Below are positions 9,390-55,031 of a DNA stretch of 60,049 nucleotides, one piece after another. The stretch is from positions 1 through 60,049 of the forward strand of contig JARLJS010000122.1 in assembly GCA_031291075.1 (NCBI GenBank). Direction: 5' to 3'. A model generated the notes under the pieces. That model made no database searches and had not been told where the DNA came from. It was given only the letters and a program-made list of their open reading frames with translations. The position numbers and the translations under genes are program-made. Position 1 is the first letter of the stretch. The number at the start of each line of letters is the position of its first letter. The DNA is from Nevskia sp. Its GTDB lineage: Bacteria; Pseudomonadota; Gammaproteobacteria; Nevskiales; Nevskiaceae.

Positions 9390-9419
9390 ATCCGTCCCCC
9401 CGGGAGGACTGAATAAGAG

Positions 9420-10642: not shown

Positions 10643-10650
10643 TTATTCAT

Positions 10651-31245: not shown

Positions 31246-31716
31246 ATGAAAACGATGCAAAAGGGTTTTACGCTGATCGAACTGATGATCGTGGTAGCGA
31301 TCATCGGTATTCTGGCGGCCATCGCCATCCCCGCTTACCAGGATTACACGATCCGTTCCGAGGTGTCGGAAGGTGCGATCCTGGCTGACGGCGTGAAGAC
31401 GGCGATGACCGAGTACTACAACAACTACGGCAAGTTCCCGTCCACCAACACCAGCGCGGGCCTGGAGGCCAAGACTTCGATCGTCGGCAAGTATGTGAGC
31501 CAGCTGGACGTGGGCGTGATCCCGGGCAAGGCCGTGGTGACCTTCGGCGGCAACCAGGTCAACGCCAAGGTGTTCGGCGACGTGCTGGCCTTCTCGGCCG
31601 CCGCCTCCAGCACCCAGGGCAGCATCCTGTGGAACTGCAAGGCCAGCCAGTCGGGTACCGCCCCGACCGGCACCTACGTTCCCAACAAGTACCTGCCGTC
31701 TGCCTGCCGTTCCTAA
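31246..31716 (+). CDS. pilA: Type IV major pilin
   Basis: 156 aa. The class IVa leader MKTMQKG is cleaved before [20 protein letters not shown] by the prepilin peptidase PilD (encoded at 55.0 kb), leaving mature Phe1 and Glu5. The C-terminal disulfide loop is Cys131 to Cys154, and the protein ends ACRS. The loop is Ser/Thr-rich ([13 protein letters not shown]). A final Ser just after the loop Cys recalls Pseudomonas group I pilins glycosylated at that residue. GAAGGACC precedes the ATG. A sigma-54-type promoter lies upstream and a strong terminator downstream. The pilin polymerises into pili for twitching, adhesion or DNA uptake. Confidence 0.95.
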
Positions 31717-31731: not shown

Positions 31732-31758
31732 AAAAGGGCCGCGCGAGCGGCCCTTTTT
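31732..31758 (+). terminator. Rho-independent terminator of pilA
   Basis: The stem GGGCCGC (31736-31742) pairs with GCGGCCC (31747-31753) around a 4-nt loop, extended by AAAA/TTTT pairing and followed by TTTTTG. It starts 16 nt after the pilA stop, and its T-run ends 4 nt before the next gene's ATG. Confidence 0.92.
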
Positions 31759-31762
31759 GTTT

Positions 31763-33739
31763 ATGCACAAGTTTGCCGCGTGCGCCGCCGGGCTCGGCGC
31801 CATGCTACTGCTGGCCTGGTGGGCTTATGCGCCGGGCCTGCACGGCGCGTTCCTGTTCGACGACTTCAACAACCTGAGCCAGCTCGGCGCCTACGGCCGG
31901 GTCGACAATTTCCGCACGCTGTTGTTCTACCTCAGCTCCGGCAATGCCGATCCGGTTGGGCGGCCGCTGTCCCTCCTCAGCTTTCTCCTCGACGCCGACA
32001 ACTGGCCTGCAGCCCCGACGCCATTCAAGCACACCAACCTGCTGCTGCACCTCCTCAACGGCGTGCTGCTGGCGCTGCTGCTGCGGCGACTGGGGCGGCG
32101 CCTGGGCTGCAGTGAAGGGCGTGCGCTGGCGGCGGCGCTGCTCGGGGCTACGCTGTGGACGCTGCACCCCCTGCTGGTCTCGACCACGCTGTACGTGGTG
32201 CAGCGGGAAGCGATGCTGCCGGCCACGCTGACCTTGCTGGGCATGCTGCTGTGGTTGGATGGCGGCGAGCGCTTGCAGCAGGGACGTCGTTTCGCCTTGG
32301 CCCGCATGGTGGCCGGGGCCTGGGCTTGCACGGTGCTGGCAGTGCTGTGCAAGGCCAACGGCGTGCTATTGCCGCTGCTGCTGCTGGTGATGGAGTGGAC
32401 ACTGCCGGAGTGTGAACCACGGCCGGAACGAACCCTCGCCGTGCGTCGCAGCCGCATCGTCCTGCTGGTGATACCGAGCGCCCTGCTGGCGCTGTGGCTG
32501 CTGGCCAAACTGCCGGCGGCATTCACTGGTGAAACGTATGGCCGCCCCTGGACGGTAGGGCAAAGGCTGCTGACGGAGCCGCGCGTGCTGGCGAGCTACC
32601 TGTCCTCGCTGTGGCTGCCGCGAGCCAGCAATTCCAGCCTGTTCAACGACGCCTTCCGCCCCTCCACCGGCTGGCTGCAGCCCGCCGCCACCCTGCCCTG
32701 CCTGATCGGCGTGCTGGCTCTGCTCGGCGCGGGCTTGGCCCTGCGCCGGCGCCATCCCGCGCTGTCATTCGCCATCCTGTTCTATTTCGCCGGTCAGTTG
32801 CTGGAAAGCACCGTCATCCAGCTCGAACTCTATTTCGAGCATCGCAATTACCTGCCGGCGCTGCCGATGTTCTGGCCGCTGGCGCTGTGGCTCACGGGCA
32901 GCGGCGGCCTGATCGCGGTGCGCCGCGGCTTGGCGATGCTGCTGCCGCTGCTGCTGGCCGGGCTGTGCCATTCGCGTGCCGTGTTGTGGGGCGCGCCCTA
33001 CGAGCAGGCGCTGCTGCTGGCGGCGAGCGACGCCGCCTCGCCGCGCGCCCAGGCCAACGCGGCTTCCTACGAGGTGGCGCACGGCCGCGCGGGACTGGCG
33101 GTGAAGCGGCTGACCGAGGCCACCGCACGCAAACCAGACGAGGCGCAACTCGCGCTGAACCTGGTCAGCGCCGAATGCGCTGCCGGCGGCGCCACGCCGG
33201 CGGCTCTCGAAGCCGCCCGCTACGCGTTGTCCCACAACGTCGAACAGGCCGAGCTGGTGCAGCGCTGGCTGGTCGGCTCGATCGCGCTCGCGGCCCGCGG
33301 CGGTTGCCGCGGCCTGGACCTGGACACGATCGCCAGCCTGGTCGCATCGATGCGCGCCAACCCCCACTACTCCAAGGGCGCCGGCCACAGCCGCGACGTG
33401 GAGGAACTGGAAGCACGCTTGTCGCTTGCCCACGGCGACGGTCAGGCCGCGCTGCGCCACCTCGACGCCGGCCTCAGGCTGTCCCCGACACCCGACGGAG
33501 CGCTGGTGGATGCGGCGCTGCTGGGCTCGGCCGGCTTTCCCGCCCTGGGACTGCAGCACCTGGACCTGTACCGGACACTCCCACCGGCCTACCGTGGCCT
33601 GCATGGCATGCCGGCCCTGCACCTGTGGCTGCTCGAGCGCGGCGGCTACTGGACCGCCGAGTTCCGGCACATGGAAAATCAGCTGCGGCAGGACGCCGCC
33701 GACCAGCCCCCCCATCCCAGCCGCCCCCCCTCATCGTGA
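31763..33739 (+). CDS. TMTC-like GT-C membrane glycosyltransferase, first of a tandem pair
   Basis: 658 aa: about ten transmembrane helices, then a ~200-aa helical soluble C-terminus with weak tetratricopeptide-like character. After the first helix comes FLFDDFNNL, then GRPLSLLSFLL, FKHTNLLLHLLNG, YVVQREAMLPATL and CKANGVLLP. This order matches eukaryotic TMTC O-mannosyltransferases and related bacterial TPR membrane proteins. The acidic pair DD is the likely catalytic site, using a lipid-linked sugar on the periplasmic side. Position right after pilA suggests pilin glycosylation; specificity is unknown. The ATG abuts the pilA terminator and has no Shine-Dalgarno, so expression probably depends on read-through. 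A downstream ATG at 31802 is a weaker alternative. Confidence 0.72.
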   Translation: MHKFAACAAGLGAMLLLAWWAYAPGLHGAFLFDDFNNLSQLGAYGRVDNFRTLLFYLSSGNADPVGRPLSLLSFLLDADNWPAAPTPFKHTNLLLHLLNGVLLALLLRRLGRRLGCSEGRALAAALLGATLWTLHPLLVSTTLYVVQREAMLPATLTLLGMLLWLDGGERLQQGRRFALARMVAGAWACTVLAVLCKANGVLLPLLLLVMEWTLPECEPRPERTLAVRRSRIVLLVIPSALLALWLLAKLPAAFTGETYGRPWTVGQRLLTEPRVLASYLSSLWLPRASNSSLFNDAFRPSTGWLQPAATLPCLIGVLALLGAGLALRRRHPALSFAILFYFAGQLLESTVIQLELYFEHRNYLPALPMFWPLALWLTGSGGLIAVRRGLAMLLPLLLAGLCHSRAVLWGAPYEQALLLAASDAASPRAQANAASYEVAHGRAGLAVKRLTEATARKPDEAQLALNLVSAECAAGGATPAALEAARYALSHNVEQAELVQRWLVGSIALAARGGCRGLDLDTIASLVASMRANPHYSKGAGHSRDVEELEARLSLAHGDGQAALRHLDAGLRLSPTPDGALVDAALLGSAGFPALGLQHLDLYRTLPPAYRGLHGMPALHLWLLERGGYWTAEFRHMENQLRQDAADQPPHPSRPPSS

Positions 33740-35658
33740 GCACAGCGCGCGCCAGACCTTGGTTCTCGTCCCCCGCCGCATTGCTGCTCGCGGTGTTGAC
33801 GCTGACCGCCTGCGTGTACTGGCCCGGCCTGTCGGGCGGCTACCTGTTCGACGATTTCCCCAACATCGTCGAAAACGACGCCGTGCACGTCACCACTCTG
33901 GAGGCGCGCGACTGGCAGCAGGCGGCGCTGGCCTCGCCATCGGCGGACCTGCGCCGGCCGCTGGCGATGCTGAGCTACGCCGCCAACTACTATTTCACCG
34001 GCTCCGACCCGCGGCCGATGAAGCTGTGCAACCTGGCGATCCACCTGCTCAACGGCCTGCTGCTGTGGGCGGTGCTGGGCAAGGTGCTGCGGCTGTGGAA
34101 CGAACGGCGCGCGCAGCCGCTGCCGCAGTCCACCCTGCACAACGCGGCGCTCGGGCTGACCGCCGCCTGGCTCTTGTGCCCGATCAACATAAGCTCGGTG
34201 CTGTACGTGGTACAGCGCATGGAGAGCCTGGCGCAGGTGTTCGTGCTGGCCGGCCTATTGGTTTACCTGCACGGGCGCGAGCGGATGCTGCGCGGCCAGA
34301 CCGGCGTGCTGCGCTGCGCTGCGGGCCTGGCGCTCGGCGCCGTGCTCGGGCTCGGCTGCAAAGAGTCATCGGTACTGCTGCCGGTGTACGCCTTCCTGCT
34401 CGAATTGACGCTGTTGCGCTTCGCCGGCGCCGAACCCGGCGCCGGCCGCAAGCTATGGACGATATACGTCCTGCTGCTGTTCCTGCCCACGGCGGCCGGA
34501 CTGGCTTGGCTGCTGCCGCGCACGCTGCCGGCCGCCGCTTATGCCAGCCGCCCCTTCACGCTCGAACAGCGGCTGCTGACCGAAACCCGCATCCTGCTCG
34601 ACTACGTGCGCTGGACCTTGCTGCCGCTGCCGCAGCAGCTTGGCTTCTACCATGACGATATCGCGCTGTCGCGCGGCTGGCTGAGTCCGCCGGCGACGCT
34701 GGCCAGCGCGCTGCTGATCGGCGCGAGCTGGATGGCGGCGGCGATCTGTCGGCGCCGGCTGCCGCTGCTGGCGCTCGGCATCGGCTGGTACTTCGCGGCG
34801 CACCTGCTCACCGCCACCGTCATCCCGCTGGAGCTGGTGTTCGAGCACCGCAACTACTTCGCCTCGGTCGGCCTGCTGTTGGCTGCCGGCGCGTTGATCC
34901 TGGAGATTCCCCCCGGGCTGCCGTTGCTGCGCTGGAGCATCCCGCTGCTGGGACTGACCCTGTTCGCGACGGGCACCGTCGCACGCTCGATTGCCTGGGG
35001 CAACCCGGTGCGCTTCGCCTACGGCGAGGCGCTGGAACATCCTGCTTCGCCGCGTGCCAACTACGAACTCGGCCGCACCCTCGCGATAACCTCGGGCTAC
35101 CGCCCCGATTCCAAGCTGATCACGCCGGCGCTGCAAGCGTTCGAGCGCGCATCGCGGCTCTCCGGCGGCGACGCCTCGTCGCTGGCCGGCATGATCATCG
35201 TCGCCAGCCACATGCACCAGCCGGTGCCGGCGGAATGGTGGCAGGAGCTGTCGAGGCGGTTGGCCGCGCAACCACCTTCGGCGGAGGACATCTCAGGCCT
35301 GCTGTCGCTGTCCGAGTGCCAGCGCAAGGGCGACTGCGACGCCAACCCGCAGCCGCTGCTTTCGGCGTTCCTCGCCGCCCTCGGCCACCCCCATCCGTCG
35401 GCCCGGCTGCTGGGCATCTATGGCGGCTTCGCCGCCAACCAGCTCGGCGACTACACCCTGGCCGAGCGCTCGTTCGCGGAAGCCGCGACGATGTCGCCGC
35501 GAAGCGCCGGGTTCCGCCTCGACCTCGCGCGCGTGCTGCTGCTGGAAGGCAAGCAAGCCCAGGCCCTGCAGGCGTTGGATGCGCTCGACCCCCGCTCGCT
35601 CAGCCGCGACGAAGAGCAACAGGTGAAGCGGATCCGCAGCGGTGCCGGCCCTCACTGA
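33736..35658 (+). CDS. TMTC-like GT-C membrane glycosyltransferase, second of a tandem pair
   Basis: 640 aa, paralogous to the preceding gene along its whole length: GGYLFDDFPNI after the first helix, RRPLAMLSYAANYY, MKLCNLAIHLLNG, YVVQRMESLAQVF, CKESSVLLP, and VIPLELVFEHRNYF matching VIQLELYFEHRNYL. The C-terminal ~200 residues have TPR-like helices (NYELGRTLA, LGDYTLAERSFAEAA, LARVLLLEGKQAQALQAL). The GTG start overlaps the previous stop (GTGA), so the two are translationally coupled. Two adjacent paralogues may add different sugars or use different acceptors. Function is inferred from GT-C family resemblance and pilA proximity. Confidence 0.72.
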   Translation: MSTARARPWFSSPAALLLAVLTLTACVYWPGLSGGYLFDDFPNIVENDAVHVTTLEARDWQQAALASPSADLRRPLAMLSYAANYYFTGSDPRPMKLCNLAIHLLNGLLLWAVLGKVLRLWNERRAQPLPQSTLHNAALGLTAAWLLCPINISSVLYVVQRMESLAQVFVLAGLLVYLHGRERMLRGQTGVLRCAAGLALGAVLGLGCKESSVLLPVYAFLLELTLLRFAGAEPGAGRKLWTIYVLLLFLPTAAGLAWLLPRTLPAAAYASRPFTLEQRLLTETRILLDYVRWTLLPLPQQLGFYHDDIALSRGWLSPPATLASALLIGASWMAAAICRRRLPLLALGIGWYFAAHLLTATVIPLELVFEHRNYFASVGLLLAAGALILEIPPGLPLLRWSIPLLGLTLFATGTVARSIAWGNPVRFAYGEALEHPASPRANYELGRTLAITSGYRPDSKLITPALQAFERASRLSGGDASSLAGMIIVASHMHQPVPAEWWQELSRRLAAQPPSAEDISGLLSLSECQRKGDCDANPQPLLSAFLAALGHPHPSARLLGIYGGFAANQLGDYTLAERSFAEAATMSPRSAGFRLDLARVLLLEGKQAQALQALDALDPRSLSRDEEQQVKRIRSGAGPH

Positions 35659-36557
35659 TGGATACCCTGCCGTTCGTGGTGATCCCGGTCTTCAACGGCT
35701 GGGAACAGACCCGCCGCTGCCTGCTGGCGCTGCGCGCCAGCGCCGGTCTGCTGCACGTGATCGTGGTCGACCACGGCTCCAGCGATGCGACCAGGACGGA
35801 GCTGCCGCTGCAGTTTCCCGAGGTCCGCATCGTGTGTGGCGACAGCAGCCTGTGGTGGACCGGGGCCACCAACCTGGGCATCCGCGCCGCGCTGGCCGCC
35901 GGGGCGGAACTGGTAATGCTGCTGAACAACGACTGCTACCTCGAGCGGGATGCGGTGGAGCACCTGTTGCGACACCACCGCCACCGCCCCGACGCCATCA
36001 TCGCGCCGCGCCAGTGCGACGAAAGGGGCGGTGACGCCGCGGTCGAACGCATGGCGAGCTGCCTGCTGCTCGGCTTTTCCAACCTGCGCCTGCCCCGCGC
36101 CCTGGCACCGCGGCCGGACGCGGACGGCCTGATCCCGGTGCGGCTGATCGGCGGCGGCCGCGGCGTGCTCATCCCCGCCGCGGTGTTGCAGCGGGTGGGG
36201 CTGTTCGACCAGGAGCGGCTGCCGCACTATGCCGCCGACAACGACTTCTATTTCCGTTGCCGCAAGCTGGGCGTCCCGCTGCTGATAGCCGGCGATGCCT
36301 GGGTGACCGTCGACTCCGCCCGCACCTCGCTGGCCGCGGCGGGCGCCCCGCACAGTTTGGCGGAGCTGCGCCGCCTGCTGTCCGAGCCGCGCTCGCACCG
36401 CAATCTCGACGCCCAGAGCGCCCTGTTCCGCAAGCACTATCCGATCCCGGGCCTGTACCGCGTGGGCGTGTTCCTGTTCGTGCTGCGCTACCTGCTGCTG
36501 TCGCTGGGCCGGCGCCTGTCCGGGCGCGCGGCAGGCGGCGCCGGACCGGCGACTTAG
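35658..36557 (+). CDS. GT2-family glycosyltransferase
   Basis: 299 aa cytoplasmic GT-A enzyme. The start FVVIPVFNGWEQTRRCLLAL, IVVDHGSSDATR, and LWWTGATNLGIRAALAAGAELVMLLNNDCYLE resemble rhamnosyltransferase-type GT2 enzymes, in which NND takes the DxD role. The tail has a hydrophobic stretch (YRVGVFLFVLRYLLLSLG) that may bind the membrane. The ATG overlaps the previous stop by one base (TGATG). It probably adds a sugar to a lipid-linked intermediate in the cluster's glycan. Donor and acceptor are unknown. Confidence 0.82.
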   Translation: MDTLPFVVIPVFNGWEQTRRCLLALRASAGLLHVIVVDHGSSDATRTELPLQFPEVRIVCGDSSLWWTGATNLGIRAALAAGAELVMLLNNDCYLERDAVEHLLRHHRHRPDAIIAPRQCDERGGDAAVERMASCLLLGFSNLRLPRALAPRPDADGLIPVRLIGGGRGVLIPAAVLQRVGLFDQERLPHYAADNDFYFRCRKLGVPLLIAGDAWVTVDSARTSLAAAGAPHSLAELRRLLSEPRSHRNLDAQSALFRKHYPIPGLYRVGVFLFVLRYLLLSLGRRLSGRAAGGAGPAT

Positions 36558-36630: not shown

Positions 36631-36870
36631 ATGAACGCCACGGACAAGCTTCGCGCCGCCTTTGCGCGCGCGCTCTACATCGATTCCGGCAGGATCGCGG
36701 ACGAACTGGCCTACAACAGCATCCCGGAATGGGATTCGGTCGCCCACATGGCCCTGGTAGCCGAGCTGGAGCGGACCTTCGACGTAATGCTGGACACCGA
36801 CGATATCATCGACATGAGCTCCTTCGGCCGCGCCAGGCAGATCCTGGCCAAGCACGGCGTCGAGTTCTGA
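36631..36870 (+). CDS. Acyl carrier protein
   Basis: 79 aa, the standard ACP size. The 4'-phosphopantetheine attachment Ser is Ser36 in EWDSVAHMALV, the same position as in classical ACPs, followed by LERTFDVMLDTDDI, an acidic helix II region. It differs from housekeeping ACPs, whose motif is DSL, and no fab genes flank it, so it is a dedicated carrier for the genes that follow. An ATG at 36583 would add 16 residues without family support. The gap to the SDR gene is 8 nt. It is the presumed carrier of the acyl chain handled by the next four enzymes. Confidence 0.85.
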   Translation: MNATDKLRAAFARALYIDSGRIADELAYNSIPEWDSVAHMALVAELERTFDVMLDTDDIIDMSSFGRARQILAKHGVEF

Positions 36871-36878
36871 GACCGGCC

Positions 36879-37625
36879 ATGCTGCTGCAAGGGAAGGTGG
36901 CGCTGGTGACAGGAGCCGGCCGCGGCATCGGGCTGACCACCGCGGCCGTGCTCGCACGCGAGGGCGCGCACGTGGTGGTCACCGGCCGCGACCAGGCCCA
37001 GCTCGACGGCGCCTGCGCAGGCATCGCGGCCGAACAGCCGGCGGCGCAGCTGACCCCGCTGGTGTGCGACGTATCCCGGCCGGACAGTGTGCGCGACACC
37101 TTCCAGGCGGTGTTCAAGCTGACCCGCAAGCTCGACGTGCTGGTGTCCAACGCCGGCGTACTCGACGACGCCCTCATCGGTATGGTGACCGAGGCGCAGA
37201 TCCGGCGCGTGTTCGAAACCAATACCTTCGGCGTGTTGTATTGCGCGCAGTACGCCAGCCGCCTGATGCAGCGCGCGGGCGGCGGCAGCATCGTCAACCT
37301 GGCCTCGATCATCGGCGTCACCGGCAACGTCGGGCAGGCCGTATATGCAGGCAGCAAGGCTGCCGTCATCGGCATCACCCGTTCGCTCGCCAAGGAACTG
37401 GCACCACAGAACATCAGGGTCAACGCCATCGCGCCGGGTTTCATCGACACCGGCATGGCTCGCTCGATCGGGCCGGACAAGTTCACCGAGCGCGTCGCTT
37501 CGATCAAACTCGGACGGATCGGCACTCCGGAGGAGGTGGCCAGGGTGGCGCTGTTCCTGGCCTCGGAGCTTTCCTCGTATGTCACCGGTCAGGTCATCGG
37601 GGTCGACGGAGGCATGCTGATTTGA
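36879..37625 (+). CDS. SDR-family oxidoreductase, FabG-like
   Basis: 248 aa short-chain dehydrogenase. The cofactor loop is TGAGRGIG (residues 10-17), SNAGV follows near 90, and the catalytic set is Ser near 142 with Tyr156 and Lys160 in VYAGSKAA. The tail VTGQVIGVDGGM is typical of 3-oxoacyl-ACP reductases. Beside a dedicated ACP it most likely reduces a ketoacyl group on that carrier, although it could act on another carbonyl. The stop overlaps the TTG start of the ligase gene by 4 nt. Confidence 0.85.
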   Translation: MLLQGKVALVTGAGRGIGLTTAAVLAREGAHVVVTGRDQAQLDGACAGIAAEQPAAQLTPLVCDVSRPDSVRDTFQAVFKLTRKLDVLVSNAGVLDDALIGMVTEAQIRRVFETNTFGVLYCAQYASRLMQRAGGGSIVNLASIIGVTGNVGQAVYAGSKAAVIGITRSLAKELAPQNIRVNAIAPGFIDTGMARSIGPDKFTERVASIKLGRIGTPEEVARVALFLASELSSYVTGQVIGVDGGMLI

Positions 37626-39013
37626 GTTTTGCTACGCGCCTGGAGCAGTTCGCCGATCAGCCCGCGGTGATCGCAGACGACGGCTCGCGCCTGAGCTATG
37701 CCGGACTCGCGCAAGCCGCCGATCGCGTCTTCGCCTCGCCCGGGGCGCCGGCCGCGCCGCGCACGCTGATCGCGGTGGAATGCGACAACACTCTGCCGGC
37801 CCTGTGCGGCTATCTCGGCGCCCTGCGGGCGGGACATCCGGCGCTGCTGGTCGACGCGGGCCTGCCGGACGACCTGCGCCGGCACCTGTACCGGCACTAC
37901 CAGGTCGCCACCGTCTGGCAGGCCGGCGGCACCTGGGCCGGCCAGGGCTGCAGTCCGCCGCCGCTGCACGCTGAGCTGACGCTGCTGCTGTCCACCTCCG
38001 GCAGTACCGGCGCCGCCAAGCTGGTGCGGCTGAGCCTCCGCAACCTCCAGGCCAACGCCGATAGCATCGCCGCCTACCTGGAGCTGACGGCGGCGGAACG
38101 CCCGATCACCGCGCTGCCGATGCACTACTCGTTCGGCCTGTCGGTGATCAACAGCCATCTCGCCGTGGGCGCCACGCTGCTGCTCACCGCGCATTCCATC
38201 GCGGCACGGCCGTTCTGGGATTTCCTGCGTCAGCAGGAAGCCACCAGCTTCTCGGGCGTGCCGGAGATGTACCTGATGCTGCGCCGGCTGCGCTTCGAGC
38301 GCATGGCGCTGCCCTCGTTGCGCACGCTCACCCAGGCCGGCGGCCGCCTCGACGCCGAGCAGGTGCGCTGGTTCGCCGCGCTGTGTGCGGAGCGCGGCCA
38401 GCGATTCTTCGTGATGTACGGCCAGACCGAGGGCACCGCGCGCCTGGCCTATGTGCCGCACCAGCGGCTGCCGGAGAAAGCGTCCACCATCGGCATTGCC
38501 ATCCCGGGCGGCGCGTTCGAGCTGGTGGACGAAAGCGGCCATGCCATCGCCGGGGCGGGCACGCGCGGCGAGCTGGTCTACCGAGGGCCGAACGTGATGC
38601 TCGGCTACGCATCCTGCGCCGGGGACCTGGCGGCCGGGGACGCGCTGCACGGCGTGCTGCGCACCGGCGACATCGCCTGGCGCGACGACGACGGCTTCTA
38701 CAGCATCGCCGGACGCCTCAAGCGTTTCATCAAGATCTTCGGCAACCGCATCGGCCTCGACGAGGCGGAAGCGCTGCTGCGCGCGGCGGGGCACGACGTG
38801 GTGGTGACCGGGCGCGACGGGCTGCTCGCCATCGCGGTGAAGGACCCGCAGGCCGATGCCGAGCGGATCGCCACCGAGGCGTCGGCGCGCCTCCGTCTGC
38901 ACCGCTCGGCGATCCGGGCGGTGCACACGGCCGAGATCCCGCTGTCGGGCAACGGCAAGCCGCGCTACGAGGAGCTGCTGCGGGAGATCGCGCCTGCGGC
39001 GGAGGGCGGCTGA
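37622..39013 (+). CDS. Acyl-AMP ligase (ANL superfamily)
   Basis: 463 aa adenylate-forming enzyme. The P-loop LSTSGSTGAAKLV lies near residues 122-134, MYGQTEGTARL near 266 is the A5 region, GELVYRGPNVMLGY and RTGDIAWRDDDGFYSIAGRLKRFIK hold A7 and A8, and SGNGKPRY near the end has the A10 lysine. It is shorter than typical acyl-CoA synthetases. With an ACP gene just upstream it probably activates a carboxylic acid and loads it on that ACP or CoA. The TTG start overlaps the SDR stop (TTGA), so translation is coupled. The substrate is unknown. Confidence 0.83.
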   Translation: MSFATRLEQFADQPAVIADDGSRLSYAGLAQAADRVFASPGAPAAPRTLIAVECDNTLPALCGYLGALRAGHPALLVDAGLPDDLRRHLYRHYQVATVWQAGGTWAGQGCSPPPLHAELTLLLSTSGSTGAAKLVRLSLRNLQANADSIAAYLELTAAERPITALPMHYSFGLSVINSHLAVGATLLLTAHSIAARPFWDFLRQQEATSFSGVPEMYLMLRRLRFERMALPSLRTLTQAGGRLDAEQVRWFAALCAERGQRFFVMYGQTEGTARLAYVPHQRLPEKASTIGIAIPGGAFELVDESGHAIAGAGTRGELVYRGPNVMLGYASCAGDLAAGDALHGVLRTGDIAWRDDDGFYSIAGRLKRFIKIFGNRIGLDEAEALLRAAGHDVVVTGRDGLLAIAVKDPQADAERIATEASARLRLHRSAIRAVHTAEIPLSGNGKPRYEELLREIAPAAEGG

Positions 39014-39015
39014 GG

Positions 39016-40122
39016 ATGGACGTGGACCGCAGCTGCTTCGATTGGCCCGTCTTCGGCCTCGCCGACGCCGACAAGCGCGGCCGGCTGGAACGCGGCCTGG
39101 GCGAACTGACCCGCCTGCACGCGCGCAACTGCGAACCCTACGGCCGCATCGTGCAGGCGCTGGGCGTCGACCCCATGCGCGACTACGGCCTCGAAGCGGT
39201 GCCGCTGCTGCCGGTGCGGCTGTTCAAGCAATACGAGCTGAAATCCGTCCCCGACACGGCGGTGTTCAAGGTACTGACTTCGTCCGGCACCTCCTCGCAG
39301 CAATTGTCGCGGGTGGTGCTGGATCGCGATACCGCGCAGGCGCAGACCCGCGCCCTGGTCCTGATCCTGCAGGACTTCCTGGGCAAGGCGCGCCTGCCGA
39401 TGCTGATCCTCGATCATCCCGGAGTGATCAAGGACCGCCGCTCGTATTCGGCGCGCGGCGCCGGCATCCTGGGCTTGTCGAGCTTCGGGCGCGACCACGT
39501 CTACGCCCTGCGCGACGACATGACGGCGGACCTGGAGGCGGTCGCGGCCTTCGCCGAGCGGCACCGCGGGCAGCGCGTGCTGCTGTTCGGCTTCACCTTC
39601 ATGGTGTGGAAGTACTTCGTCGGCGCGCTGCGCCGGACGCCGCTGCGGACGCCCTTGAGCGACGCCATCCTGATCCACAGCGGCGGCTGGAAGAAGCTGC
39701 AGGACGAGGCGGTGGACGCCGCCACTTTCGGCCGCGCGCTCGAAGAGTTCGCCGGGGTTTCCAGGGTTCACAACTTCTATGGCATGGTGGAGCAGGTCGG
39801 CTCGATCTTCGTCGAGTGCGAGCATGGGCGCCTGCACACGCCGGCCTTTGCCGACGTGCTGATCCGCGACGCGCGCAGCGGGCTGACGCTGCCCCCCGGC
39901 CAGACCGGACTGATCCAGGCCTTGTCGCTGCTGCCGGCGAGCTACCCGGGGCACAGCCTGCTGACCGAGGATCTGGGCGAGTGGACCGGGGTCGACGACT
40001 GTCCCTGCGGGCGGCTGGGACGCACGTTCAAGGTGCATGGCCGCGCGGCTCGCACCGAGCTGCGCGGCTGCAGCGACACCCACGCCGCCGCCGTGGAACA
40101 GGTCGCCGGAGCCAGCGCGTGA
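39016..40122 (+). CDS. LuxE-family acyl-protein synthetase
   Basis: 368 aa, the size of LuxE, the enzyme of the luminescence fatty acid reductase complex that activates an acid as acyl-AMP. Visible are LTSSGTSSQQLSR near residue 88, HPGVIKDRRSYSARGAGILGLSSFG, LIHSGGWKKL and the A5-like NFYGMVEQVGSIF near 255, plus CPCGRLGRTFKVHGR near the end. No luciferase genes are present. It begins 2 nt after the ligase stop with GAGG upstream, and its stop overlaps the LuxC-like gene by 4 nt. It probably delivers an acyl group to the LuxC-like reductase. Two separate acid-activating enzymes in a row are unusual. Confidence 0.83.
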   Translation: MDVDRSCFDWPVFGLADADKRGRLERGLGELTRLHARNCEPYGRIVQALGVDPMRDYGLEAVPLLPVRLFKQYELKSVPDTAVFKVLTSSGTSSQQLSRVVLDRDTAQAQTRALVLILQDFLGKARLPMLILDHPGVIKDRRSYSARGAGILGLSSFGRDHVYALRDDMTADLEAVAAFAERHRGQRVLLFGFTFMVWKYFVGALRRTPLRTPLSDAILIHSGGWKKLQDEAVDAATFGRALEEFAGVSRVHNFYGMVEQVGSIFVECEHGRLHTPAFADVLIRDARSGLTLPPGQTGLIQALSLLPASYPGHSLLTEDLGEWTGVDDCPCGRLGRTFKVHGRAARTELRGCSDTHAAAVEQVAGASA

Positions 40123-41330
40123 GCGAGCCCTACGAGGCACTCGTCCCCGGCTCGCCGGCGCCGGAGCTGCTGAGGGCGGCGGCTCCGTTGCGGCCGTTTG
40201 CGCCGGAAGCCTGCGCCTTCCTCGAAGCCCTCTCGGACCTGCTGCTGCAACAGCGCAGCGCCCGGGCTTATGCCGAACTCACCGCGCTGGCCTACTGGAT
40301 GCGCCGCGCCTCGATCCGCCGCCTGCAGGCGGACTGCGCGGCGCGGCAGGGCACCGCGCTGCTGCTGGCACGCGGCACCGTGTTCCACATCGCGCCGGCC
40401 AACGTCGACACCATCTTCGTATACTCCTGGGCCCTGTCGCTGCTGACGGGCAACCGTAACATCGTGCGTCTGTCCAGCCGTTCGTCGCCACAAACCGAAG
40501 TCCTGCTGGATGCCATCGCAGCGCTGCTGGGCGACGCCGCGCACCGTACGGTCGGCGAGCGCACCCTGCTGCTGCGCTATGCTCCGGACGACGCCCTCAC
40601 CGGGCGGCTGTCGGCGCAGTGCGACGCCCGTATCGTGTGGGGCGGCGACGCCACCGTGGCCGAGATCCGGCGCATCCCGCTGCCTGCCACCGCGATCGAG
40701 GTGGCATTCGCCGACAAGCAGTCGATCGCGCTGGTTGACGCGGCCCGCTGGAACGGGTTCGACCAGGCCCGGCGCGACGGGCTGGCGGAGTCGTTCTATA
40801 CCGACGCCTATTGGTTCGGACAGATGGCCTGCTCCTCCCCGCGCGTGGTGTTGTGGCTGGGGACGGCGGAGGCGACCGCGCAGGCGCGCGCCGATTTCTG
40901 GCCGCGGGTGGAACGGGTGATCGCCCGCCGACAGGAACGCTTCAGCGACATCGACTATGTCGACAAGCTGGTGGCCGCGGATTCGCTCGCAATCGAGCTG
41001 CCGGTGCGGATCGAAGCCTCGGCCAACAACGACCTTACGCGCTTGTGGGTGGACCGGCCGGGCCTGCGCGTGCCGCACTTCTGCGGAGCCGGCCTGTTCC
41101 TGGAATCGCGCATCGCCGCCTTGGACGAGCTGCGTCCCCTGCTCGACCGCAAGCTGCAGACCGTATGCTACGCGGGGCTGGACAGCGACGAGCTGCGCGC
41201 CTTCGTGGCCGCCGCGCCGCTGGCCGGAGTCGATCGGTTCGTGCCGTTCGGCCGGGCTCTCGAATTCGCGCCGGTGTGGGACGGTTTTGACTTGATGCGA
41301 GTGTTCGCACGCGAGGTGACGGTGATATGA
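40119..41330 (+). CDS. LuxC-family acyl-CoA/acyl-protein reductase
   Basis: 403 aa, somewhat shorter than luminescence LuxC (~480). LuxC forms a Cys-bound acyl intermediate and reduces it with NADPH to an aldehyde. The likely nucleophile is Cys238 in YWFGQMACSSPRVV, matching the QMCSSP-type LuxC motif; GTVFHIAPANVDTIF and SLLTGNRNIVRLS fit the N-terminal cofactor region. The GTG start overlaps the LuxE-like stop (GTGA). In the absence of luxAB the product is not for light. A LuxE-LuxC pair with ACP and ligase resembles the tetronate genes proposed in the Vibrio cholerae O1 O-antigen region (rfbKLMNO, where RfbN has LuxC and LuxE similarity), so synthesis of a sugar acyl substituent is plausible. 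Confidence 0.83.
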   Translation: MSEPYEALVPGSPAPELLRAAAPLRPFAPEACAFLEALSDLLLQQRSARAYAELTALAYWMRRASIRRLQADCAARQGTALLLARGTVFHIAPANVDTIFVYSWALSLLTGNRNIVRLSSRSSPQTEVLLDAIAALLGDAAHRTVGERTLLLRYAPDDALTGRLSAQCDARIVWGGDATVAEIRRIPLPATAIEVAFADKQSIALVDAARWNGFDQARRDGLAESFYTDAYWFGQMACSSPRVVLWLGTAEATAQARADFWPRVERVIARRQERFSDIDYVDKLVAADSLAIELPVRIEASANNDLTRLWVDRPGLRVPHFCGAGLFLESRIAALDELRPLLDRKLQTVCYAGLDSDELRAFVAAAPLAGVDRFVPFGRALEFAPVWDGFDLMRVFAREVTVI

Positions 41331-41373
41331 GCAGACTCCCACGATCACGGCAACACGTGCTGCAGGAATGCCC

Positions 41374-42033
41374 ATGCCGCTGCTGAATGCGCCGGCGGTG
41401 CGCTCCGTGGTGATCGCAGGTGCAGGCGGCTTTGCCCTGGAGATGTTCGACTACCTGCTGTCCGAGCGGGACGGCCCCGAAGTGCTGGGCTTCATCGACG
41501 ACCGGCCCGAAGCGCTGCCGCCGCCGGGCACCGGCCGTCCGCACCTGGGCCGCATCGACGCCTACCGACCCGCCGCGGACCAGGGGGTGGTGGTGGCCAT
41601 CGGTTCGCCCCAGGGACGTTCCAACGTGCTGAACACGCTGTGGCAGCTCGGCGCCGTCACGCCGGCCTACGTCCACCCGCTGGCACTGGTATCGCCGGCG
41701 GCGCGGCTGGGGCGCGGCACCATCGTCTGTCCCTATGCCATCGTCAACCGCAACGCCAGCGTCGGCGACGGCGTGCTCGTCAACGTGCACTGCTGCGTCG
41801 GCCATGGCGCCGCCGCCGGCGATTTCTCCGTGCTCTCACCCTACGCCGATCTCAACGGCGACTCCGCCATCGGCGCCGGCTGCTTCCTCGGCACACGTGC
41901 CACGCTATTTCCACGGGTGACGATCGGGCGGGAATGCGTCGTGGATTCGCATACCGCGGTGCGCGCCAGCGCGGAGGACCGGCAGATAATCTCGTCGCGC
42001 GGCCCCTACACGGTCAATCCACGCCGGACCTAG
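41374..42033 (+). CDS. PglD/NeuD-like sugar acyltransferase
   Basis: 219 aa. An N-terminal Rossmann-like domain (VVIAGAGGFALEMFDYLLSE, then VLGFIDDRP) precedes a left-handed beta-helix of hexapeptide repeats from about residue 95 (LVSPAARLGRGTIVCPYAIVNRNASVGDGVLVN, then the catalytic-His region HGAAAGDFSVLSPYA). PglD-type enzymes N-acylate UDP-4-amino sugars using acyl-CoA. Placed right after the acyl module, it is the best candidate to transfer that acyl group to an amino sugar. ATG at 41374 has GCAGGA 7 nt upstream and is preferred over ATG 41368. Confidence 0.82.
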   Translation: MPLLNAPAVRSVVIAGAGGFALEMFDYLLSERDGPEVLGFIDDRPEALPPPGTGRPHLGRIDAYRPAADQGVVVAIGSPQGRSNVLNTLWQLGAVTPAYVHPLALVSPAARLGRGTIVCPYAIVNRNASVGDGVLVNVHCCVGHGAAAGDFSVLSPYADLNGDSAIGAGCFLGTRATLFPRVTIGRECVVDSHTAVRASAEDRQIISSRGPYTVNPRRT

Positions 42034-42172: not shown

Positions 42173-42940
42173 TCAGTCCCAAGCGCAAGGCCGGGCGGCG
42201 TCCTGGCGCCGGAAAAAAGTGGCATTGAACTGCAGCACCCTGCCGCTGGAAGGATCGACTAAGTCCGAGGAGATGTCCCACAAGTCAAAACCCGCATGAT
42301 CCATGAACTTGATCAATTCGGGCATCAATTGCTGTCCGGCATAGAGCGGCACCAGGGAAAGTTCGAGGTGGATGCCCATCAAGCGTGGAAGGATGCGGGA
42401 AGCCCCGTCAAGCACCTGGCGTTCGTAGCCCTGCGTATCGATCTTCAGGAAAATCACGGAACGCTCGTCGATATAGTCCGCCGCGACCGTGTCGAGGCGG
42501 CGTAGCGGAACCTTCTCCACGCCGAGGCGGCGCGAGTGCGGCGCGACGCTGGAGTGCGATTCCAGCATCGGCAGGATCGAACTGCTGACGGAATTGGCCG
42601 CGACATTGATCTCAACCTCGCCATCACTGGCACCTATGGCACCGACCGGCGCCACGTCCCACAGGGGATCCTTCGCAGCATCCGCACTGAGCACGGCATG
42701 AGCAGCCTGGAGCGGTTCAAACGAAACGATGCGCTCCGTATAGGAGTAGTTGTCGCGAAGCTCCCGGCCGAATTGGCCGACATTCGCACCGACGTCGAGA
42801 ACCAGGTTGATGCCGTGATTGCGCAGCATCGCGCCCAAGCGCACCGCGCCGGAATGCGCCAGGCTGCGCCGATGGATGTCGAAGCCGAGCCAGCGCATCG
42901 CGGCGATTAGTTTCGAATCCAGATAGTATCGCGCTTGCAT
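42173..42940 (-). CDS. FkbM-family methyltransferase
   Basis: 255 aa. The SAM-binding loop is VLDVGANVGQFGREL (about residues 48-62), then VSFEPLQAAHAVL, and the FkbM-type IFLKIDTQGYERQVLDGASRIL. FkbM enzymes O-methylate sugars or other hydroxyl groups, so it likely methylates a sugar of the cluster's glycan. The ATG at 42940 has AGAGA upstream. It is the last gene of the minus-strand operon, 59 nt after the preceding glycosyltransferase, the widest gap in that operon. Just beyond its stop is the glycosyltransferase remnant. Confidence 0.83.
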   Translation of the reverse strand: MQARYYLDSKLIAAMRWLGFDIHRRSLAHSGAVRLGAMLRNHGINLVLDVGANVGQFGRELRDNYSYTERIVSFEPLQAAHAVLSADAAKDPLWDVAPVGAIGASDGEVEINVAANSVSSSILPMLESHSSVAPHSRRLGVEKVPLRRLDTVAADYIDERSVIFLKIDTQGYERQVLDGASRILPRLMGIHLELSLVPLYAGQQLMPELIKFMDHAGFDLWDISSDLVDPSSGRVLQFNATFFRRQDAARPCAWD

Positions 42941-42999
42941 CGAAATTTCTCTGTGAGCAGCTCTCGCGTCCGGGCGCGCAAAAGCAACGGGCCTAAGAA

Positions 43000-44190
43000 T
43001 CAACCACTGACCGCGGCGATGGCCTCCAGGATAACCTCCCCGCATTGGCGCCGACGCGAGCGTCCTGCCTGCAACAGGCTGTCGGCCCGCGCCTCGGCCG
43101 GAACACGTTGCGGCAGCGCCAGGGCCTGCTCCATGCGGTGCGCCAGTTCCTCGGGCGAATCGGGCCGGAAGTAGGCGCGATAGCCGGACTCAATCTCGCG
43201 GTTGACGGGGATGTCGGACAGCAGCAACGGCGTGTCCACCGATACCGCATCGTAGGCCGCGCCGCCGCCCGGCCCGCCCTCGACCAGGCTCGGCTGGATC
43301 ACCGCCACGCAGCGCTTGACCAGTTCCATCTGCTCGCGCTTGGGGATGTGACCGAGGATGCGCACGCGGCCGGCGACGCCGTGCCGGTCCAACAGCGCCC
43401 GCAGTTCCTGGAAGTGGCGCGGATGGCGGTAGTCGTGCGTGTCGCCCGTGCAGACCAGTTCCACCTCCGACCGATGCCGCAGCAACGCCAGCGCCTCGAA
43501 CGCACAGCGGTGGTTCTTGTGCAGCCAGAACTGGTTGCTGATGAGGAAGAAGCCGTCGCCAATGCCGTATTTCTCCACTACGCCGGGCAGCGCCTCCAGC
43601 CACTCGCGCCGCGGCGCCGGCGCGAACGGCAGGGCCACCAGCCGGGTCCGGTAGCCTGGATAAAAATGGTGGATGTCGTCGGCGACGGCGCGCGCGTTCA
43701 CCAGCACGGCCCTGGCCCTGCGCAGCACGCCGGTGAAGCGGGCGTCGCTGACCCGACGTTGCCGGCGGCTAAAGAAGTCCGGGTAGTGACGGTGCTGCAG
43801 ATCGTAGATGTAGCCGAGCCACGGCTGGCGCAGCACCGGCCCGGGCGCATCCATGGCAGGCAGCAGGCAGTCGAGCCGCAGCCGCCCTGCGGCGCGCGCC
43901 AAGGCGAGCGGGCCCAGGTCGATGACGTGGATATGCAGCTGCGGAAACTGCTCGGCAAAGAACTCGTGGTAACGCTTCAGCTCCGCTGCCGGCGCCGGAA
44001 ATTCCGGACGCGTGCGGCGCTCCATCGCCCGTTTGAGGTTGCGCAGATTGATCAACGGCCCGGCGGCAGGCACCAGCAGGTGCAGTTCCACATCATTGCC
44101 GGCGGCGTACAGCGAATCCATGATCATGCGCAGAAAATCCAGGCCGCCGGCCCAGCCGGTCAGCCCGGCCGCGACAATGCCGAGCTTCAT
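43000..44190 (-). CDS. GT4-family glycosyltransferase
   Basis: 396 aa GT-B enzyme. The N-terminal part begins MKLGIVAAGLTGWAGGLDFLR. The C-terminal donor-binding part includes FFLISNQFWLHKNHRCAFEAL and VIQPSLVEGGPGGGAAYDAVS, where the EGGPGG acid region is typical of this GT4 subgroup, followed by PLLLSDIPVNREI. It adds a sugar from a nucleotide donor to a lipid-linked glycan in the cytoplasm; the sugar is unknown. The ATG overlaps the aminotransferase stop by 4 nt (ATGA). A remnant of a close relative lies at 42081-42140. Confidence 0.85.
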   Translation of the reverse strand: MKLGIVAAGLTGWAGGLDFLRMIMDSLYAAGNDVELHLLVPAAGPLINLRNLKRAMERRTRPEFPAPAAELKRYHEFFAEQFPQLHIHVIDLGPLALARAAGRLRLDCLLPAMDAPGPVLRQPWLGYIYDLQHRHYPDFFSRRQRRVSDARFTGVLRRARAVLVNARAVADDIHHFYPGYRTRLVALPFAPAPRREWLEALPGVVEKYGIGDGFFLISNQFWLHKNHRCAFEALALLRHRSEVELVCTGDTHDYRHPRHFQELRALLDRHGVAGRVRILGHIPKREQMELVKRCVAVIQPSLVEGGPGGGAAYDAVSVDTPLLLSDIPVNREIESGYRAYFRPDSPEELAHRMEQALALPQRVPAEARADSLLQAGRSRRRQCGEVILEAIAAVSG

Positions 44191-45293
44191 GCCGCCCGGG
44201 CGAAGAAATCACGGATGGCGTCGGCGACCTCCGTGACACCATCTTCGCCGAGCGCCGGCCAGCTCGGCAGGTTGATGCCCCGCCAGGCTAGTTCCTCGGC
44301 AACCGGATGCTTCTGGTAACGCACCGAATACATCGGCATGGTGTGCACCGGGTAGAACAGCGGGCGCGTCTCGATGCCGCGGGCGCGCAGGTGCCGGCGC
44401 AACGGCTCGCGCTGCTCCGGGCGCTCGACCAGGATCGAGATCATCCAGTAGGTATGGCGGCCGCCCTCGAAATCCTTGTGTACCGACACCGGCAGGCCGG
44501 CGAGCTGCCTGCGGTAATGCTCGGCGAGACGGCGCTTGCGGCCGATGAAATCCTCCACGCGCTCGAGCTGCGCCAAGCCGATCGCCGCGCAGATGTTGGT
44601 CATGCGGTAATTGTAGCCGACGACGTCGTGCCAGTATTCCCGGTACGCGGCGAGCCCCTGCCCCTTGAAATGCTTGGTGCGCTCGAACAAGGTCTTGTCG
44701 CTGGTCGATACCATTCCACCCTCGCCGGTGGTGATGGTCTTGTTGCCGTAGAAGCTGAAGGTGGCGATGTCGCCGAAAGTGCCGACGTGGCGATCCCGGT
44801 AGCGCGTGCCGATGCCCTCGGCGCAATCCTCGATCAGGAATACCCTGTGCTTCCTGGCCAGCGCGCATAGCGCTTCCATGTCACAGGGATGACCGTACAG
44901 ATGGACCGGCATGATCGCCTTGGTATGCGGGCCGATCTTGCGCTCCACGTCGGCCGGGTCCATCTGCCAGTCGACGGGATTGGAGTCGACGAACACCGGC
45001 GTGGCGCCGGTGTAGGCAATGGCATTCACCGACGCGATGTAAGTGAGCGTCGGTACGATTACCTCGTCGCCCGGCCCGATGCCAAGCGCCAGCATGGCAA
45101 GGTGGAGAGCCACGGTGCCGTTGCACACCGCAGCCGAATAGGAAACGCCGACGTACTCCGAGAAACGCTCCTCGAACGCCGGGATGTACTTGCCCTTGGA
45201 CGAGATCCAGGACGAATCGAGGCAGTCCATCACGTAGCGCTTCTCGACCTCGCCGAGTTCGGGCTGGTAGACGGGGATTCTGATGTCGGTCAT
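44187..45293 (-). CDS. DegT/DnrJ/EryC1-family sugar aminotransferase, perosamine synthase-like
   Basis: 368 aa PLP enzyme. The start IPVYQPELGEVEKRYVMDCLDSSWISSKGKYIPAFEE..., NGTVALHLAMLALGIGPGDEVIVPTLTYIASVNAIAYTGA and IEDCAEGIGTRYR closely resemble GDP-perosamine synthases (RfbE/Per). The PLP-binding Lys is Lys185 in FYGNKTITTGEGG. It would transaminate a 4-keto (less likely 3-keto) nucleotide sugar to an amino sugar that the PglD-like enzyme could then acylate. No 4,6-dehydratase gene lies in the window, so the keto donor must come from elsewhere. It has 4-nt overlaps with genes on both sides. Confidence 0.88.
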   Translation of the reverse strand: MTDIRIPVYQPELGEVEKRYVMDCLDSSWISSKGKYIPAFEERFSEYVGVSYSAAVCNGTVALHLAMLALGIGPGDEVIVPTLTYIASVNAIAYTGATPVFVDSNPVDWQMDPADVERKIGPHTKAIMPVHLYGHPCDMEALCALARKHRVFLIEDCAEGIGTRYRDRHVGTFGDIATFSFYGNKTITTGEGGMVSTSDKTLFERTKHFKGQGLAAYREYWHDVVGYNYRMTNICAAIGLAQLERVEDFIGRKRRLAEHYRRQLAGLPVSVHKDFEGGRHTYWMISILVERPEQREPLRRHLRARGIETRPLFYPVHTMPMYSVRYQKHPVAEELAWRGINLPSWPALGEDGVTEVADAIRDFFARAA

Positions 45294-50910: not shown

Positions 50911-50924
50911 ATCTCTCGGCCTGC

Positions 50925-53714: not shown

Positions 53715-53786
53715 ACTATTCTTGCGTAAATGCAGAGCGGGCGCCGCCGGCGCGGTCGTGCGCTAGAGGACGGGGGGAGGATCGAG

Positions 53787-55013: not shown

Positions 55014-55031
55014 GCCATCCCGATCCACGGC

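What the first reader, a model, noticed from the sequence alone, without database searches (positions are those of the whole stretch)
36631..42033. LuxC/LuxE-type acyl reductase module without luciferase, inside a glycan locus
Five consecutive coupled genes encode an ACP (Ser36 site), a FabG-like SDR, an acyl-AMP ligase, a LuxE-like acyl-protein synthetase and a LuxC-like reductase (Cys238), followed by a PglD-like acyltransferase. luxAB are absent. The set resembles the genes proposed for tetronate synthesis in Vibrio cholerae O1 (rfbKLMNO, RfbN similar to LuxC plus LuxE), where the acid acylates perosamine. Here LuxE and LuxC are separate genes, an SDR replaces the alcohol dehydrogenase, and a perosamine-synthase-like aminotransferase is in the convergent operon. 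The inferred output is an unusual short acyl group placed on an amino sugar.
Basis: partly seen in the sequence, partly recalled or inferred. Interest (0 to 1): 0.8.

Follow-up and report, generated by a model that had tools for sequence, protein, structure and literature searches.

The report
Sugar-acylation gene cassette beside pilus genes
Five bacterial genes that resemble part of the light-making pathway are, most likely, a widely shared kit for making a small, hydroxyl-rich acid and hanging it on an amino sugar of a surface glycan, here probably one that coats the type IV pilus.

Summary
In detail: ACP, SDR, AMP-ligase, LuxE, LuxC and a PglD/VioB-type acyltransferase lie at 36631-42033 with the stated active-site residues. 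The five-gene set is already in print (Aeromonas flagellin-glycosylation islands; same gene kinds in Enterobacteriaceae), read there as fatty acid or 'liposugar' genes. In 83 related loci from many phyla the ligase-LuxE-LuxC core recurs in 78. Of 65 loci with enough flank (window included), 44 have an amino-sugar N-acyltransferase (PseH or PglD type) nearby; no FabF turned up beside a cassette. Three relatives have Fe-ADH instead of SDR, in V. cholerae rfbKLMN-like order; others add transketolase or another thiamine enzyme, both of which use aldehydes. Best reading: LuxE/LuxC reduce a C4 hydroxy-diacid, perhaps malate, to its semialdehyde; SDR makes 2,4-dihydroxybutyrate (3-deoxytetronate); the ligase loads it on ACP; PglD puts it on perosamine. 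The published 376.14 Da Aeromonas pseudaminic derivative fits this acyl group (376.148). The locus lies between pilA and pilB; no LuxC match was found in 17 same-genus relatives, so it looks like a swapped-in piece of a pilus-linked glycan locus. Substrate, product and target are inferred; nothing was assayed.

The parts
31246..31716 (+). type IV pilin (pilA), ends ...PSACRS; likely glycan acceptor (inferred)
   Evidence: PF00114, PF07963; a Ser beyond the Cys-Arg at which four relatives without the locus end
31757..33739 (+). multi-helix membrane protein with TPR-like tail, candidate pilin glycosyltransferase (inferred)
   Evidence: no Pfam match; conserved DD and EHRNY motifs with paralogue and relative; low-confidence model; kept in relative G909
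33742..35658 (+). paralogue of the preceding membrane protein with TPR tail
   Evidence: TPR_19 2.7e-5, just under Pfam's own cut-off; 33% identical to its neighbour
35658..36557 (+). family 2 glycosyltransferase
   Evidence: PF00535 7e-14
36631..36870 (+). acyl carrier protein, Ser36
   Evidence: PF00550; WDSxxH in 95 of 95
36879..37625 (+). SDR reductase, FabG-like; proposed to reduce the aldehyde
   Evidence: PF13561 8e-68; Ser, Tyr and Lys of the SDR pattern in 82, 82 and 83 of 83 (pattern recalled)
37622..39013 (+). AMP-forming ligase, proposed acyl-ACP ligase
   Evidence: PF00501 6e-45; best PDB match oxalyl-CoA synthetase 6qjz, E 5e-26
39016..40122 (+). LuxE-type acyl-protein synthetase, candidate acyl-acceptor Cys352
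   Evidence: PF04443 5e-41; Cys352 in 108 of 108 aligned (window and two non-cassette relatives included) and in 3 lux and 3 RfbN-like
40119..41330 (+). LuxC-type acyl reductase, Cys238
   Evidence: PF05893 8e-23; model pLDDT 92.7, first PDB match LuxC of 7xc6; Cys238 in 103 of 103
41368..42033 (+). PglD/VioB/PerB-type N-acyltransferase
   Evidence: TIGR03570 3e-42, under its cut-off; PDB VioB 7txp, pilin glycosylation protein 4m98, perosamine N-acetyltransferase 4ea7
42173..42958 (-). FkbM-type methyltransferase
   Evidence: PF05050 2e-19
43000..44190 (-). group 1 glycosyltransferase
   Evidence: PF00534 2e-13; 42% identical protein directly after LuxC in L015
44187..45281 (-). perosamine-synthase-type aminotransferase
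   Evidence: PF01041 2e-126; PDB 3bn1 E 5e-109
45290..46648 (-). Wzx-type flippase
   Evidence: PF01943 3e-17
46645..47778 (-). UDP-GlcNAc 2-epimerase (WecB-type)
   Evidence: PF02350 6e-108
47772..51773 (-). two group 1 glycosyltransferases (47772-48983, 49729-50910), a methyltransferase (48980-49753) and a family 2 glycosyltransferase (50925-51773)
   Evidence: the last two glycosyltransferases are kept in G909 and G911, the methyltransferase in G911
51981..55898 (+). pilB, pilC, pilD; right-hand border of the variable glycan locus
   Evidence: PF00437 with PF05157, PF00482, PF01478; pilB used as anchor in 41 genomes

Best explanation
The cassette builds a short, hydroxylated acyl group and delivers it to the amino group of a 4-amino-4,6-dideoxy sugar. 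Proposed steps: LuxE activates one carboxyl of a C4 hydroxy-diacid, most likely malate, as acyl-AMP and holds it on Cys352. LuxC takes the acyl on Cys238 and reduces it with NAD(P)H to malate semialdehyde. The SDR reduces this aldehyde to 2,4-dihydroxybutyrate (3-deoxytetronate). The AMP-ligase loads the acid on the ACP. The PglD/VioB-type acyltransferase moves it to the amine of nucleotide-perosamine made by the aminotransferase at 44190-45281. The acylated sugar then enters a glycan assembled by the neighbouring glycosyltransferases and flippase, and probably ends on the pilin. Shown: gene content, order, conserved active-site residues, kinship, frequent neighbourhood with N-acyltransferases, pilus context. 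Inferred: every reaction, the substrate (malate), the product, the acceptor sugar and pilin as target.
For: Genes and residues; LuxC model matches LuxC of 7xc6 first. Of 83 related loci, 78 have ligase upstream and LuxC downstream of LuxE, 72 have ACP, 65 SDR, 62 all five. Of 65 loci with at least 4.5 kb on both sides of LuxE (window included), 44 have a PseH- or PglD-type N-acyltransferase within 6.5 kb: 28 PseH only, 14 PglD only, 2 both; 21 neither. With the window left out, a DegT-type aminotransferase is in the locus in 8 of 13 PglD-only, 21 of 28 PseH-only, 0 of 2 both and 4 of 21 neither. Three loci have Fe-ADH in the SDR slot with LuxE and LuxC fused. Transketolase or acetolactate-synthase-like genes, aldehyde-using enzymes, lie near 26 of the 79 classified rows, and this trait follows the LuxC tree (6 changes against 22.1 shuffled, 0 of 500 as low). 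No FabF hit beside a cassette; FabH-like in 5 of 114 loci scanned. L015 joins a 69%-identical aminotransferase, PglD and cassette. Gmd, which makes the 4-keto sugar, is in the genome. Mass: published 376.14 Da sugar of Aeromonas AH-3, a strain with this cassette, against 376.148 for mono-acetyl Pse plus C4H6O3.
Against: No assay, mutant or glycan structure exists for this locus. 21 of 65 full-flank loci show neither acyltransferase with my profiles, and the PseH profile may also catch other GNAT proteins. The RfbKLMN-like proteins are distant: against cassette profiles they score 285-306 (LuxE), 102-121 (LuxC), 41-56 (ACP) and 141-161 bits (ligase), where the lowest other cassette rows score 514, 264, 103 and 299; light-operon LuxE and LuxC score 47-54 and 55-67. 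Conserved LuxC columns do not favour either side (3 shared with RfbN-like only, 4 with lux only). C4H6O3 is not unique: O-methylglyceryl and other dihydroxybutyryls have the same mass, and C3H2O4 falls within 0.03 Da. The 376.14 value was seen in passages; the original 2012 paper is not held. Gmd sits beside a GDP-fucose synthase in another locus and may serve that. Aminotransferase and PglD are on opposite strands here. V. cholerae O1 itself was not read.
Confidence: 0.53

Rival explanations
1. Liposugar: the cassette makes or handles a fatty acyl chain (ACP, FabG, FadD-like ligase, LuxE, LuxC), so that the glycan carries a lipid. This is the published guess for the flagellin islands.
For: Annotations as fatty acid genes and the authors' reading. 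LuxE/LuxC of light-making bacteria act on long-chain acids (established knowledge).
Against: No FabF-like frame beside a cassette and FabH-like ones in 5 of 114 loci scanned. Split transketolase in 12 of 83 loci and an acetolactate-synthase-like enzyme in 10 of 83. On the LuxE tree the cassettes lie apart from light-operon LuxE. 376.14 Da is 60 above Pse5Ac7Ac, too little for a lipid.
Confidence: 0.13
2. A different short acyl: 3-hydroxybutyryl, 4-hydroxybutyryl, glyceryl/O-methylglyceryl or another C3-C5 acid, with LuxE/LuxC and SDR acting on another substrate than malate.
For: FabG-like SDRs usually act on 3-oxoacyl-ACP; 3-hydroxybutyryl is known on the viosamine of P. syringae flagellin. 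O-methylglyceryl has the same formula as dihydroxybutyryl.
Against: 3- or 4-hydroxybutyryl predicts 360.15, not 376.14. A plain 3-hydroxyacyl needs no LuxE/LuxC reduction. Fe-ADH in the SDR slot of three relatives points to aldehyde reduction.
Confidence: 0.23
3. The LuxC aldehyde is itself the product, used to alkylate an amine or as a building block in an aldol step by NeuB-like enzymes, and the ACP/ligase serve another acyl group.
For: NeuB-, TPP- and transketolase-type genes near many cassettes could use aldehydes.
Against: None of these profiles matched near the window's cassette, while ACP, SDR and often an N-acyltransferase travel with the core.
Confidence: 0.07
4. Relic or light-related set: genes left from a bioluminescence operon without function in the glycan.
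For: LuxC and LuxE family matches.
Against: Active-site residues intact, tightly coupled genes, the same core in 78 of 83 related loci, LuxE outside the light-operon branch.
Confidence: 0.02

Closest known systems
Five-gene set orf1-orf3-luxE-luxC of Aeromonas group II flagellin glycosylation islands (PMC7874193) and the fatty acid genes of enterobacterial islands (PMC4875605)
   Same: Same five gene kinds (order stated for Aeromonas, and seen in loci L057, L070, L077); glycan locus; ligase-LuxE-LuxC core
   Different: In Aeromonas beside pseH and pseudaminic acid genes; here beside PglD, a perosamine-type aminotransferase and the pilin. Authors suggest a liposugar.
Tetronate genes of Vibrio cholerae O1 (rfbK-O / wbe, VC0248-VC0252)
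   Same: ACP, ligase, aldehyde/alcohol reductase and LuxC- and LuxE-type activities proposed to supply 3-deoxytetronate to perosamine (proposal cited in PMC3441752; gene-by-gene roles recalled)
   Different: In the rfbKLMN-like loci read here (L146-L148) Fe-ADH replaces SDR, and LuxE and LuxC are fused; sequence kinship is distant; V. cholerae itself was not read
[quoted passage not shown]
   Same: Core LuxC-LuxE-ligase-FabG-ACP with an aminotransferase and FkbM
   Different: Adds split transketolase and a second FabG; I predict that it lengthens the chain by two carbons
Bioluminescence fatty acid reductase LuxC-LuxE (7xc6)
   Same: Fold of LuxC; the acyl-transfer cysteines of both proteins
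   Different: No luciferase among 25 window genes scanned; separate branch of the LuxE tree; ACP, SDR and ligase added

Membership tests
ACP-SDR-ligase-LuxE-LuxC glycan cassette (Aeromonas group II type) | five genes in this order on one strand | tested here: met
   the same order on one strand within 4 kb in 32 of 83 loci
ACP-SDR-ligase-LuxE-LuxC glycan cassette (Aeromonas group II type) | lies in a glycan gene cluster | tested here: met
   glycosyltransferases, flippase, aminotransferase around it
ACP-SDR-ligase-LuxE-LuxC glycan cassette (Aeromonas group II type) | pseH and pseudaminic acid genes adjacent | tested here: not met
   no PseG, PseH or NeuB profile match near the window's cassette; PglD instead
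V. cholerae O1 tetronate pathway | ACP, ligase, aldehyde/alcohol reductase, LuxE and LuxC types in one cluster | tested here: met
   SDR here, Fe-ADH in rfbKLMN-like loci
V. cholerae O1 tetronate pathway | LuxE and LuxC fused, Fe-ADH present (rfbN, rfbM) | tested here: not met
   separate genes and SDR in the window
V. cholerae O1 tetronate pathway | perosamine as acceptor | tested here: inconclusive
   perosamine-type aminotransferase and gmd elsewhere in the genome; sugar not determined
V. cholerae O1 tetronate pathway | product is 3-deoxytetronate | not testable with these tools
   no glycan data for this organism; indirect mass fit in Aeromonas
Bioluminescence lux operon | luxA, luxB, luxD present | tested here: not met
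   no luciferase match among 25 window genes scanned; genome not searched
Bioluminescence lux operon | LuxE groups with light-operon LuxE | tested here: not met
   split supported at 99 on a quick LuxE tree, midpoint root
LuxC / LuxE enzyme families | acyl-accepting cysteines | tested here: met
   Cys238 and Cys352; role of the LuxE cysteine recalled
NeuD/PglD/VioB sugar N-acyltransferases | curated family profile | tested here: inconclusive
   TIGR03570 144.5 bits against a cut-off of 160.8, residues 14-207; PDB VioB 8e-20

The most novel reading that the evidence does not exclude
The ligase-LuxE-LuxC core is the heart of a general, modular pathway found in many phyla: it makes a hydroxy-acid semialdehyde that is either reduced (SDR or Fe-ADH) to a C4 acid or lengthened in two-carbon steps by transketolase or another thiamine enzyme to C6 and C8 polyhydroxy acids, which are then put on the amine of pseudaminic acid, perosamine or related sugars. 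One formula series would then cover three puzzling flagellin sugars: Aeromonas 376.14 (C4, calculated 376.148), Treponema denticola 450.2 (C6 plus methyl, calculated 450.185; structure recalled, not read) and Shewanella oneidensis 510/524/538 (C8 plus one to three methyls; the published increments C9H16O7, C10H18O7 and C11H20O7 are the same formulas). A cassette was not shown in the last two species.
Probability: 0.4. Interest if true: 0.85.

Novelty: new variant of a known kind. Interest (0 to 1): 0.6.

Why it matters
These genes are common in surface-glycan loci and have been annotated as fatty acid genes. If the reading is right, a whole class of loci can be assigned a chemistry (short polyhydroxy N-acyl groups), several unexplained flagellin masses get one explanation, and the 1995 tetronate proposal becomes testable outside V. 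cholerae with purified enzymes from environmental bacteria.

Tried and rejected
Single-sequence PDB search with LuxC found nothing; the predicted structure did. The model of the membrane protein at 31757 was too poor to use (pLDDT 61), so its role stays inferred. I first thought that conserved LuxC residues (Arg171, Trp387) tie the cassettes to RfbN; a count of all conserved columns does not bear this out (3 columns shared with RfbN-like only, 4 with lux only), so I dropped it. They do not fit the model and I cannot explain them. The S. oneidensis paper does not mention LuxE, LuxC or the genes SO_3266 to SO_3271, so that strain is linked by formula and by its NeuB, TPP and SDR genes only. The published liposugar reading was considered and set aside for the reasons given under rivals.

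Rows dropped before counts: the tool kept 80 of at least 572 relatives. In one search, 20 of 100 labelled loci were unclassifiable; 79 of the other 80 had a usable LuxC. Labels came from profile matches within 9 kb for L010-L092 and the window, and by hand for 16 of the 30 loci L146-L175 (14 left out). The 5 of 83 loci failing the core rule are L010, L035, L051, L054 and L079; L010 has the core by tblastn, with its ACP on the other strand. The LuxC tree was cut in the output and I did not see where its light-operon rows fall.

Papers: PMC7874193, PMC4875605, PMC3441752, PMC3765264, PMC3958885, PMC4284686, PMC7575072 and PMC9413593 were seen as passages found by search terms; none was read whole. 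Wilhelms 2012 and Kurniyati 2017 are not held. Recalled, from no call: the T. denticola structure, the role of the LuxE C-terminal cysteine, the roles of V. cholerae rfbK-O gene by gene, the SDR catalytic pattern, and C-terminal pilin glycosylation in P. aeruginosa.


Full report
What is there. Six genes on the + strand at 36631-42033 encode an ACP, a FabG-like SDR, an AMP-forming ligase, a LuxE-type acyl-protein synthetase, a LuxC-type reductase and a PglD/VioB-type acyltransferase. The first five overlap or are at most 8 bases apart; the sixth follows after 37 bases. ACP Ser36, LuxE Cys352 and LuxC Cys238 are present in 95 of 95, 108 of 108 and 103 of 103 aligned sequences (window included, and in the LuxE set also the two non-cassette relatives L173 and L175). 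The two cysteines are also in the 3 light-operon and 3 fused RfbN-like sequences, and the Ser in the 3 RfbK-like ACPs. The predicted LuxC structure (pLDDT 92.7) has LuxC of the Photobacterium fatty acid reductase complex, 7xc6, as its first PDB match, followed by aldehyde dehydrogenases.

Where it lies. The region between pilA (31246) and pilB (51981) holds two membrane proteins with TPR-like tails, a GT2, the cassette, PglD, and on the other strand FkbM, glycosyltransferases, a methyltransferase, a perosamine-type aminotransferase, a flippase and WecB. Among 61 genomes searched (the window's own, 17 of its genus, others of its family and order) only the window's own has a LuxC match at E 1e-20; several of the genomes are incomplete. 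For 12 relatives, up to 20 kb upstream of pilB was fetched and compared by tblastn. In G909 (PilB 90% identical) the two TPR membrane proteins and the last two glycosyltransferases before pilB are kept, while the middle is replaced by DNA of lower GC that includes a distant PglD (27%) and DegT (39%). G911 keeps the last two glycosyltransferases and the methyltransferase up to its contig end. The other ten show none of the locus genes under my cut-offs (one of them, L207, is only 3.4 kb); in four of them (L210-L213) pilA lies about 3-4 kb from pilB. Pilins of the two genomes with the TPR membrane proteins end in Cys-Arg-Ser or Cys-Arg-Thr (3 of 3 pilins); in L210-L213 the pilin stops at Cys-Arg, and in L208 (two pilins) and L214 it has a longer tail; no pilin was found by my pattern in L209, L215 and L216. 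This small sample suggests that the glycan is put on a hydroxyl at the pilin's C-terminus.

How common it is. A LuxE alignment found at least 572 relatives in species genomes, of which the tool kept 80; three more came from a class search in which 4 of 369 genomes, the window's own included, were positive. Over these 83 loci, ligase upstream and LuxC downstream of LuxE occur in 78; ACP in 72, SDR in 65, all five in 62; the exact window order on one strand within 4 kb in 32. Named carriers include Pseudomonadota, Bacillota, Bacteroidota, Ignavibacteriota, Planctomycetota, Spirochaetota and others. Nearest kin of the window are Duganella and Iodobacter. The set has been described before: ACP, 3-oxoacyl-ACP reductase, AMP-dependent synthetase, luxE and luxC in 98 Aeromonas group II strains, and Acp, LuxE, LuxC, CaiC and FabG in enterobacterial flagellin islands, both with the suggestion of a liposugar. 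Dickeya zeae has a transketolase-containing version upstream of fliC.

What travels with it. Of 65 loci with at least 4.5 kb on both sides of LuxE (window included), 44 have an N-acyltransferase of the PseH or PglD type within 6.5 kb: 28 PseH only, 14 PglD only and 2 both; 21 have neither. With the window left out, a DegT-type aminotransferase is in the locus in 8 of 13 PglD-only, 21 of 28 PseH-only, 0 of 2 both and 4 of 21 neither. In L015 the aminotransferase (69% to the window's), PglD and the cassette form one run, followed by a protein 42% identical to the window's GT1. In L146, L147 and L148 an iron alcohol dehydrogenase stands between the ligase and a fused LuxE-LuxC protein, with no SDR inside the set: a layout like V. 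cholerae rfbKLMN (gene-by-gene roles there are recalled, the assignment of VC0248-VC0252 to tetronate is from PMC3441752 passages). These proteins are distant from the cassettes, though nearer than light-operon LuxE and LuxC: profile scores are 285-306 against 47-54 bits for LuxE and 102-121 against 55-67 for LuxC, with cassettes at 514 and 264 or more. Split transketolase occurs in 12 of 83 loci and an acetolactate-synthase-like enzyme in 10 of 83. The extended kind follows the LuxC tree: 6 changes against a shuffled mean of 22.1, 0 of 500 shuffles as low, 26 extended and 53 simple rows. FabF-like frames gave 2 hits in 114 loci scanned, both in the non-cassette loci L173 and L175; FabH-like ones occur in 5 loci.

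Mechanism. By family, the constant core can turn a carboxylic acid into an aldehyde (LuxE, LuxC) and load an acid on a carrier (ligase, ACP). What varies is what can be done with an aldehyde: reduce it (SDR or Fe-ADH) or join carbon to it (transketolase, TPP enzyme). What often follows is an amine acyltransferase. The simplest pathway that uses all window genes is malate to malate semialdehyde to 2,4-dihydroxybutyrate to acyl-ACP to N-acyl-perosamine. The choice of malate is inference, guided by the V. cholerae product and by mass.

Mass test. Aeromonas AH-3 carries the cassette next to pseH and has a flagellin sugar reported at 376.14 Da, plus an unknown 102 Da moiety. Pseudaminic acid with one acetyl replaced by C4H6O3 is 376.148; 3-hydroxybutyryl would be 360.153, malyl 390.127. 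Subtracting the published parts of the AH-3 heptasaccharide leaves 102.04, which repeats the authors' own subtraction and is compatible with a second C4H6O3. A. caviae Sch3N is listed with Pse5Ac7Ac; whether it lacks the cassette was not stated in the passages seen. The S. oneidensis increments C9H16O7, C10H18O7 and C11H20O7 on a C11H18N2O6 core equal a hexahydroxy-octanoyl chain with one to three methyls, and the recalled T. denticola group is the C6 member with one methyl. These are fits of formula, not proofs.

Verdict. The set itself is known; the pilus/perosamine setting and the cross-phylum chemistry are the new part.

Noticed in passing
window 31246-31716; L225 1742-2956; L208, L210-L214: Pilins ending in Cys-Arg-Ser/Thr occur in the two genomes with the TPR membrane proteins; six relatives without them end at Cys-Arg or have longer tails.
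   Followed up: partly
L205 (G909), about 3000-16000: Low-GC replacement of the middle of the pilus glycan locus in a close relative, with a distant PglD and DegT.
   Followed up: partly
   Followed up: partly
L164, L076, L080: Loci with two LuxE-LuxC sets, one of them fused in L164.
   Followed up: no
L157 8953-9672: A thioesterase-domain gene sits between ligase and LuxE in a transketolase-type cassette.
   Followed up: no
window 11222-20032: Single open frame of 2936 residues with two GH94 supersandwich stretches, a GH94 catalytic domain and a glucoamylase-like domain; looks like a cyclic glucan synthase.
   Followed up: partly
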